Shown in pieces: positions 13,942-16,631 of a DNA stretch of 37,363 bases. Positions within the stretch are counted from its first letter, which is position 1. Every line of letters starts with the position of its first letter. The notes beneath the pieces are model-generated. The model had not been told where the DNA came from. It saw only the letters and a list, made by a program, of their open reading frames with translations, and searched no databases. Where the stretch lies: the IMG/VR virus record IMGVR_UViG_3300025127_000103, positions 1 through 37,363 of that record; one strand, 5' to 3'. This DNA comes from a virus. A program made the position numbers and the translations under genes.

Positions 13942-14418
13942 AGAGGGGCGTTGGATGATATATACGATTCTAGACGCGCTCGATGCTGACCCCCTCCTCC
14001 CCCGTTGCAGTTTTACCGGGCTTGCTAACCTTGGTTTCATGTTGAAAATCAATGATTTATGAAACTCGAGTTCCCAGGGTGACAGCCAGGGTCACGCGTG
14101 AAAGAATTATTTATTTATTCGCAGCGGAAAGTATTCATGCAGCATCTTCGCAGCATCGCATCGCAGCGCAGCGTCGCAGCCTCGGAGCCAGTAACCACGT
14201 ATAAAGGGGCTAAGAAGGGGGATGCTACGGAGTCACGGAAAAGGGATTCTACAAGGGCAATTAAGTATCTGGATAAAAAAGCTTGCACAGGGTTGCAGAG
14301 TGTGCATCTTGGGGGGTGCAGTTCCGTTCTTTGACAGTCCTTCCGCTAACTTCTCCTTGTTGGTAAAGCAGGGATGTATGACGACTTAGTAAGGGGGATA
14401 CGCGTTGGTAACCATTGG
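13942..14418. other. Non-coding control region, ~480 bp
   Basis: No gene here is convincing. One open frame (14098-14334, GTG start) crosses the GCAGC repeats and has low-complexity content, so I do not call it. The region holds a small hairpin (GTGAC/GTCAC, near 14079-14095), the GCAGC-rich tract, and a G-rich segment near 14311. It may carry further regulatory or packaging signals. Confidence 0.5.
14121..14180. repeat. GCAGC-rich short repeat tract
   Basis: Six GCAGC pentamers occur within 60 bases (14121, 14139, 14150, 14163, 14168, 14176), several as CGCAGCATCGCA-type units. This composition differs from the surrounding AT-richer DNA. It may be a protein-binding cluster or slippage-derived. 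Confidence 0.55.
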
Positions 14419-15928: not shown

Positions 15929-15993
15929 CTACCAAGCTCGCACCTTTACCGGTGCGGGCTTTTTTGGTAGACAGGGCTATGTATTTTCGTAGC
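15929..15993 (+). terminator. Strong terminator plus second hairpin (module D)
   Basis: A 9-bp stem GCTCGCACC/GGTGCGGGC (15936-15944 with 15951-15959) with TTTTTT, wrapped by an outer stem CTACCAA/TTGGTAG (15929-15935 with 15964-15970). A second hairpin GCTATG/CGTAGC (15976-15981 with 15988-15993) follows, in the pattern of modules A-C. It ends the small-gene run. Confidence 0.8.
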
Positions 15994-16012
15994 ATACAAA
16001 CGAGACTGCCAG

Positions 16013-16053: not shown

Positions 16054-16120
16054 GGGGGTGCAAGGCGATCGACTTGGTTTAGAACTAAGGACGGAGGTTC
16101 AAATCCTCCCACCTCCACCA
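16054..16120 (+). ncRNA. tmRNA-like tRNA-like domain (67 nt, alanine type)
   Basis: The acceptor stem is GGGGGTG (16054-16060) paired with CACCTCC (16110-16116), with a G3-U70 pair, discriminator A and encoded CCA (16118-16120). G3-U70 is the alanyl-tRNA synthetase signal found in tRNA-Ala and tmRNA. The T arm is GGAGG-TTCAAAT-CCTCC (16093-16109). There is no D stem. Instead a GATCGAC stretch, the tmRNA D-loop analogue, leads into a 5-bp stem CTTGG/CTAAG (16073-16077 with 16085-16089) closed by the 7-base loop TTTAGAA. So the 5' and 3' ends of a tmRNA appear joined without tag ORF or pseudoknots. It may be a functional mini-RNA, a tmRNA remnant from past integration, or an unusual tRNA (anticodon position UAG). 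Confidence 0.65.
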
Positions 16121-16154: not shown

Positions 16155-16631
16155 ATGTATTCAGAATCCGCAAGATCCGCGCTGGCCTTTTGCCAATCCA
16201 TGACAGAAAAATATTACGAACTCCTCAACACGGGGGACATAACCGATGCCGTGCAGCGCCGGCCTAACCGGCAAAAAATTTGCGTTAATCCAGAAGCCGA
16301 AGCCAACTGGCTATCACTAATTATCATGCGAATCGAGCAGAATAAAATGAGTTGGAGGGAAGCAGCATTGGGAACTCCCTGGGAGGATAGACCTGAGGCA
16401 CTTCGTCACCTAGCGGTTAGGCGCGGGGTTTATAGCACGAAGATGCTAAGGGCAAAGAAGGCTAAAGATACTAAGAGAATAAACGATGAAGCCAAAAGGA
16501 TAAACAAGCTAGTCCGCATGGGTCACGGGCATCTAAAGGACATTGTAAAGGCTAGCACGATCAGCCTGAATCAATACTACGCAGCTAAGGGAAGGTTGAA
16601 TTTACCTCATACTGACAAGCGTGTAAGATAA
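16155..16631 (+). CDS. Hypothetical DNA-binding-like protein, 158 aa
   Basis: The protein starts MYSESARSALAFCQSMTEKY. The middle has MSWREAALGTPWEDRPEALR. The C-terminal half is strongly basic and helical (KMLRAKKAKDTKRINDEAKR ... LVRMGHGHLKDIVKASTISL), resembling a helix-turn-helix region. A regulator or nucleic-acid-binding role is plausible. It lies between the tRNA-like RNA and the promoter/iteron region, a natural place for the factor that controls them. No family is recognised. Confidence 0.65.
   Translation: MYSESARSALAFCQSMTEKYYELLNTGDITDAVQRRPNRQKICVNPEAEANWLSLIIMRIEQNKMSWREAALGTPWEDRPEALRHLAVRRGVYSTKMLRAKKAKDTKRINDEAKRINKLVRMGHGHLKDIVKASTISLNQYYAAKGRLNLPHTDKRVR

What the first reader, a model, noticed from the sequence alone, without database searches (positions are those of the whole stretch)
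16054..16120. Mini tmRNA: alanine-type tRNA-like domain without tag ORF or pseudoknots
The 67-nt element has the acceptor stem with the G3-U70 pair, discriminator A, encoded CCA, T arm and a D-loop analogue without a D stem, which together are the features of a tmRNA tRNA-like domain. The long tmRNA body is replaced by a 5-bp stem with a 7-base loop whose anticodon position reads UAG. It could be an alanylatable decoy that interferes with host trans-translation, a tRNA that puts alanine at CUN codons, or a deleted tmRNA captured by a past insertion at ssrA. I recall Chlamydiae/Verrucomicrobia tmRNA ends being close to it, so it may identify the host. A phage-borne tmRNA domain cut down this way is not something I know to be described.
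Basis: partly seen in the sequence, partly recalled or inferred. Interest (0 to 1): 0.82.

Follow-up and report, generated by a model that had tools for sequence, protein, structure and literature searches.

The report
Phage mini-tmRNA without the message part
A phage carries a 67-nucleotide RNA gene that is only the tRNA-like end of tmRNA, the bacterial RNA that rescues stuck ribosomes; closely similar genes occur in about 200 other viral contigs and keep exactly the bases needed for alanine loading and for binding the partner protein SmpB, so phages probably use it to divert the host's ribosome rescue.

Summary
Rfam's tmRNA model covers 16054-16120 end to end (57.6 bits, cut-off 47), while ARAGORN finds nothing. 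It is a tRNA-like domain (TLD) only: no tag frame, no pseudoknots. It is not a relic or an att core. A tight pattern finds about 97 viral contigs with a 62-74-nt form and about 104 with a 73-85-nt form; a broader pattern finds only 5 in 84,980 bacterial and archaeal genomes. Across 33 distinct short forms all six P2 pairs covary. The base pair G3-U70 (alanine identity) is never replaced: a control scan for G3-C70 finds 0. The SmpB contacts U17, G19 and A334 are nearly invariant. Relatives close the lower stem with UUCG, CUCG or other 3-5-nt loops, so "anticodon UAG" is not a real feature. Most likely this is an alanylated decoy that captures host SmpB and enters stalled ribosomes in place of tmRNA. 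New here are the breadth of the family, its conservation, and the evidence for selection on charging and SmpB binding. Function is inferred, not shown.

The parts
16054..16120 (+). mini-tmRNA (tRNA-like domain only), 67 nt with encoded CCA
   Evidence: RF00023 57.6 bits, E 3.4e-20; own model R1 85.6 bits (trained on it)
16054..16060 (+). acceptor stem 5' strand GGGGGUG; G3 at 16056
   Evidence: pairs with 16110-16116, 33/33 relatives paired
16061..16072 (+). D-loop analogue CAAGGCGAUCGA, no D stem; equivalents of U17, C18, G19, A20 at 16069-16072
   Evidence: U17 31/31 in short forms although free in the scan pattern; G19 and U17 contact SmpB in E. coli tmRNA (PMC8363625)
16073..16089 (+). P2 stem-loop CUUGGUU-UAG-AACUAAG (7 bp and 3 nt, or 6 bp and 5 nt)
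   Evidence: 6 of 6 P2 pairs covary in 33 sequences
16090..16092 (+). linker GAC; A is the equivalent of A334
   Evidence: A in 31/31 short and 47/47 long forms, 154/155 overall
16093..16109 (+). T arm GGAGG-UUCAAAU-CCUCC
   Evidence: 3 of 5 pairs covary
16110..16120 (+). acceptor 3' strand CACCUCC (U70 at 16114), discriminator A, CCA
   Evidence: U70 in all minis; scan for C70 gives 0 of 2.9 million contigs
15934..15961 (+). intrinsic terminator immediately upstream
   Evidence: 11 pairs then T run; stem kept with changed sequence in relatives
15962..16009 (+). conserved promoter-like block TTTTGGTAGACA..GCTA..TTTT..TAGCAT..CAAACGAGACTGC between terminator and RNA
   Evidence: conserved in 10 leaders compared, including divergent relatives; weak sigma70-like match 15968-15995; promoter function inferred
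16155..16631 (+). downstream gene, 158 aa, no family match; follows the RNA directly in close relatives only

Best explanation
This is a phage-encoded, tag-less mini-tmRNA. It is transcribed from its own unit, trimmed like a tRNA, charged with alanine by host AlaRS and bound by host SmpB. The Ala-TLD-SmpB complex then occupies SmpB and enters ribosomes stalled on broken messages in place of host tmRNA. Having no reading frame, it cannot add the degradation tag or resume translation, so host trans-translation is reduced or diverted during infection. Shown here: anatomy, wide conservation, covariation, retention of AlaRS and SmpB determinants, and absence of phage SmpB or a second tmRNA in the records searched. 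Inferred: transcription, charging, SmpB binding, ribosome entry and the net effect.
For: RF00023 over cut-off and in 40 of 43 related virus records, with no convincing second tmRNA and no SmpB gene. About 97 short and 104 long viral loci against 5 in 84,980 genomes. All 6 P2 pairs covary; 99.7% of cells paired against 81.8% in shuffles. G3-U70: 201 stretches with U70, 0 with C70. G19 replaced in 8 stretches: 6 are tRNAs, 1 also holds UCGA, 1 is real; U17 replaced in 9, of which 2 are tRNAs. U17, G19 and A334 contact SmpB, and mutation of G19 to C prevents tmRNA-SmpB binding (PMC8363625). A TLD fragment closed by a UUCG loop was crystallised with SmpB, and TLD with SmpB makes polyalanine without a template (PMC3929946). 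A DS6A-like TLD strongly inhibits tmRNA (PMC4131195, PMC11915505). Terminator plus conserved promoter-like block upstream.
Against: No transcript, charging or phenotype data. Inhibition by a DS6A-like TLD was reported whether or not it could be charged, so a pure SmpB sponge would not need the strict G3-U70. The nearest named phage, C75C1, lacks the RNA, so it is not essential throughout the group. Short forms lie mostly in one broad phage lineage, so counts are not independent events. Host tmRNA is unknown.
Confidence: 0.62

Rival explanations
1. Tag-less rescue RNA that helps the phage: it frees ribosomes from cleaved messages by adding alanine (perhaps several) without marking the protein for degradation, with release by another factor.
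For: Same retained determinants; strict G3-U70 fits a charged, ribosome-active molecule better than a sponge; TLD with SmpB supports template-free polyalanine synthesis in vitro.
Against: No resume codon or stop, so recycling would need a further factor; none identified; the reported in vivo effect of such an RNA is inhibition.
Confidence: 0.2
2. Decoy for a host RNA-targeting defence, or another use of a tRNA-like fold such as a processing or stability element for the downstream message.
For: Lies 20-44 nt before an ORF on the same strand in many relatives; encoded CCA and T arm make a minimal RNase P substrate (general knowledge).
Against: In about ten contigs it is convergent to the next gene with 1-2 nt between them, and contexts vary; does not explain the conserved U17, G19, A334 and G3-U70.
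Confidence: 0.1
3. Attachment-site remnant or deleted ssrA captured at integration.
For: ssrA is a common integration site; some phages carry its 3' end.
Against: att-type copies in mycobacteriophages match only the last 31-33 nt, with an integrase 88 nt further on in Validus; here both halves are present and the P2 stem covaries.
Confidence: 0.03
4. A D-armless tRNA that reads CUA or CUN with alanine.
For: In a 5-bp/7-nt reading the loop has U33, UAG and A37.
Against: ARAGORN does not call it and the tmRNA model outscores any tRNA model there; relatives have 3-5-nt caps with no shared triplet.
Confidence: 0.02

Closest known systems
Mycobacteriophage DS6A TLD-only tmRNA (Hudson 2014 PMC4131195; Mao 2009; PMC11915505)
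   Same: [quoted passage not shown] a similar molecule inhibits endogenous tmRNA in E. coli
   Different: Published as a single case; its sequence was not in the collections here, so it was not aligned. The window's RNA belongs to a large covarying family in another phage lineage
Canonical tmRNA (Rfam RF00023)
   Same: Acceptor stem with G3-U70, D-loop GG..UUCGAC, T arm, CCA, base of P2
   Different: No tag frame, no pseudoknots; P2 is 6-7 bp and capped; 67 nt instead of about 350
CDS-less plastid tmRNAs of Mallomonadaceae (about 65 bp; PMC11915505)
   Same: Same reduction to about 65 nt
   Different: Organellar, two sequences, not phage; not compared by sequence here
Engineered T. thermophilus TLD fragment closed by UUCG in the SmpB crystal structure (PMC3929946, Fig. 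2)
   Same: Same architecture, even the UUCG cap found in several relatives
   Different: Laboratory construct
Complete phage tmRNAs (e.g. phage Melnitz two-piece ssrA, PMC9004378)
   Same: Phage-borne ssrA
   Different: Those keep the mRNA-like part and could tag

Membership tests
tmRNA (RF00023) | tRNA-like domain: acceptor stem, T arm, D-loop without D stem, CCA | tested here: met
   57.6 bits, model 1-374
tmRNA (RF00023) | G3-U70 alanine identity pair and A73 | tested here: met
   invariant across the family, C70 control 0; charging itself not testable here
tmRNA (RF00023) | tag reading frame with resume codon and stop | tested here: not met
   only the 17-nt P2 hairpin lies between the halves
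tmRNA (RF00023) | pseudoknots PK1-PK4 | tested here: not met
   no room; model body skipped
tmRNA (RF00023) | SmpB-binding determinants U17, G19, A334 | tested here: met
   present at 16069, 16071, 16091; conserved in family; binding itself not testable here
[quoted passage not shown]
TLD-only phage tmRNA (DS6A type) | sequence homology with DS6A | not tested
   DS6A record absent from the collection
TLD-only phage tmRNA (DS6A type) | inhibits host tmRNA | not testable with these tools
   needs experiment
tRNA | D stem and 7-nt anticodon loop | tested here: not met
   ARAGORN none; relatives mostly lack a 7-nt loop
ssrA att core | only the 3' end of ssrA, next to an integrase | tested here: not met
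   both halves present and covarying; no integrase among the matches for the window proteins scanned

The most novel reading that the evidence does not exclude
Many unrelated phages encode alanylatable, SmpB-binding mini-tmRNAs that enter stalled ribosomes and either block host trans-translation or replace it with untagged, alanine-only rescue: a phage counter-system against ribosome quality control.
Probability: 0.5. Interest if true: 0.88.

Novelty: new variant of a known kind. Interest (0 to 1): 0.74.

Why it matters
Ribosome rescue by tmRNA is nearly universal in bacteria, and why phages would interfere with it is open. One TLD-only tmRNA (DS6A) was a curiosity. A family of at least 155 distinct sequences that never loses the alanine pair and almost never the SmpB contacts turns it into a testable phage strategy, with at least one cultured phage (Stenotrophomonas virus Jojan60). 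It would also be a naturally evolved equivalent of the TLD constructs used in structural work and a lead for trans-translation inhibitors.

Tried and rejected
DS6A could not be fetched under JN698994 or NC_023744. A DNA search of the surrounding 5 kb against named phages gave nothing; the terminase protein gave only C75C1, 71% identical, which lacks the RNA. Matches in Ruegeria RpAliso, Alcaligenes QDWS595, Xanthomonas Rb1, Gordonia GMA2 and a Pseudomonas phage record (at its annotated attR) proved to be full or permuted tmRNAs, and mycobacteriophage Validus an att-like 3' end. Vibrio D497 and D479 hits are annotated tRNAs. The downstream 158-aa gene as a constant partner was rejected, since context changes in other relatives. 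No paper on phage anti-tmRNA factors was found beyond the DS6A line.

Full report
OBSERVATION. The 67 nt at 16054-16120 read GGGGGUG CAAGGCGAUCGA CUUGGUU UAG AACUAAG GAC GGAGG UUCAAAU CCUCC CACCUCC ACCA. Rfam's tmRNA model matches from its first to its last position with the body skipped: 57.6 bits against a gathering score of 47, E 3.4e-20. ARAGORN calls nothing in the window. The record is a virus contig and holds no other tmRNA. The whole architecture occurs once in the window and 0 times in 200 simulated windows.

A FAMILY, NOT A SINGLE CASE. A 28-nt exact pattern gave five relatives whose lower stem is CUAGC-UUCG or CUCG-GCUAG, different in sequence but equally paired. Apart from ordinary tRNAs they fall into short forms (about 62-74 nt) and long forms (about 73-85 nt, larger P2 with an inner hairpin), nearly all missed by ARAGORN. 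Tighter scans give 97 short and 104 long stretches in IMG/VR. A pattern covering both sizes gives 5 in 84,980 bacterial and archaeal genomes. Among distinct sequences held, 155 carry the architecture.

SELECTION. In 33 distinct short forms 99.7% of cells are paired (81.8% in shuffles), 11 of 18 pairs change on both sides, and all 6 P2 pairs covary; RNAalifold finds the same structure unaided. Cells are not independent events, since most short forms belong to one broad phage lineage, but proteins in that lineage diverge down to about 28%. In positions left free by the first pattern, U17, A334 and U70 are 31/31, 31/31 and 31/31 in short forms and 46/47, 47/47 and 47/47 in long ones; tRNAs caught by the same pattern show 2/16, 3/16 and 7/16. 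A mirror scan with C70 in place of U70 gives 0. Replacing G19 by any other base gives 8 stretches: 6 tRNAs, 1 that also holds UCGA, 1 true variant. Replacing U17 gives 9, of which 2 are tRNAs and 7 are not called as tRNAs.

WHAT THESE BASES DO. The third pair G-U is recognised by AlaRS; U17 and A334 form part of the pocket for SmpB Trp122, and a G19C mutant does not bind SmpB (PMC8363625). SmpB replaces the missing lower half of the tRNA; the crystallised TLD fragment was closed with UUCG; TLD plus SmpB makes polyalanine without a template (PMC3929946). The phage RNA therefore keeps what is needed to be charged and to bind SmpB, and drops what is needed to tag. That it is charged and bound is inference. 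A15, the third base of the Trp122 pocket in E. coli, is not kept (the window has G there), so the pocket is not identical.

THE LOWER STEM IS P2, NOT AN ANTICODON ARM. The 7-bp and 6-bp readings are more stable than the 5-bp reading. Relatives have 6-7 bp with caps UUCG, CUCG, UAGU, AUAU, CUAGA, UAAGC and others. A UAG triplet recurs in some caps, but in different places and not in most relatives.

SURROUNDINGS. An intrinsic terminator ends at 15961. It is followed in all ten leaders examined by a conserved block (TTTTGGTAGACA...TAGCAT...CAAACGAGACTGC), then the RNA. This suggests its own promoter (inference). The next gene, 158 aa, lies 24-34 nt downstream in close relatives, but in others the neighbours differ, and in about ten contigs the RNA is convergent with the next gene. 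None of 44 records searched has SmpB and none of 43 a convincing second tmRNA, so host SmpB would be used. Records are mostly fragments, so absence is not proof.

PRIOR ART. Hudson et al. 2014 list phage DS6A as 'TLD only' and state that a similar molecule, chargeable or not, strongly inhibits tmRNA, perhaps by titrating SmpB (PMC4131195). The 2025 tmRNA database paper repeats this and adds two plastid cases (PMC11915505). The kind is therefore known from one phage. I found no paper describing a phage family, covariation, or conservation of charging and SmpB determinants; most subscription papers are not in the library. Cultured case found here: Stenotrophomonas virus Jojan60, ON045087 37722-37804 (- strand), RF00023 61.8 bits, beside four tRNAs, overlapped at one end by an annotated 46-aa hypothetical ORF.

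MECHANISM. Best: an alanylated decoy for host trans-translation. The strict G3-U70 suggests that charging, and so probably ribosome entry, matters, which a pure SmpB sponge would not need. Rival: tag-less rescue. Relic, att core and decoding tRNA are disfavoured by the data above. Sequence alone cannot separate blocking from tag-less rescue.

NOVELTY. Filed as a new variant of a known kind: relative to tmRNA it fails two defining features (tag frame, pseudoknots), and relative to the DS6A-type TLD-only RNA it is a further case, but what was a singleton becomes a broad, covarying, virus-enriched family with two size classes.

Noticed in passing
window 14331-14401 (+): RAGATH-24 structured RNA over its gathering score (49.2 bits), between the divergent gene blocks; in relatives L003 and L004 a twister-P1 ribozyme-like match follows it within 4 nt
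   Followed up: partly
L133:1493-1575 (Stenotrophomonas virus Jojan60): Unannotated 83-nt mini-tmRNA in a cultured phage, overlapped at one end by an annotated hypothetical ORF
   Followed up: yes
L184:572-651 (Streptomyces phage Alone3): TLD-only candidate below the Rfam cut-off (36.8 bits), without encoded CCA, inside a tRNA cluster
   Followed up: partly
long forms, e.g. L015, L045, L075, L105: 73-85-nt minis share an inner motif (UAAA-RCC ... GG-A) between the P2 strands; meaning unknown
   Followed up: no
L185, L186, L187, L188: Full or permuted tmRNA genes without annotation in Alcaligenes QDWS595, Xanthomonas Rb1, Gordonia GMA2 and Ruegeria RpAliso phages
   Followed up: partly
L131:1621-1716 and L187:943-999: Pistol ribozymes near phage tRNA or tmRNA genes
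   Followed up: no
window, all ORFs: Few Shine-Dalgarno-like leaders (9 of 42 ORFs) and A-rich leaders; hints at a host that rarely uses SD, not resolved
   Followed up: no
L128:2383-2466, L129:7186-7269: Long-form mini-tmRNA near tRNA genes on cyanobacterial contigs (L129 in a dense tRNA array)
   Followed up: no
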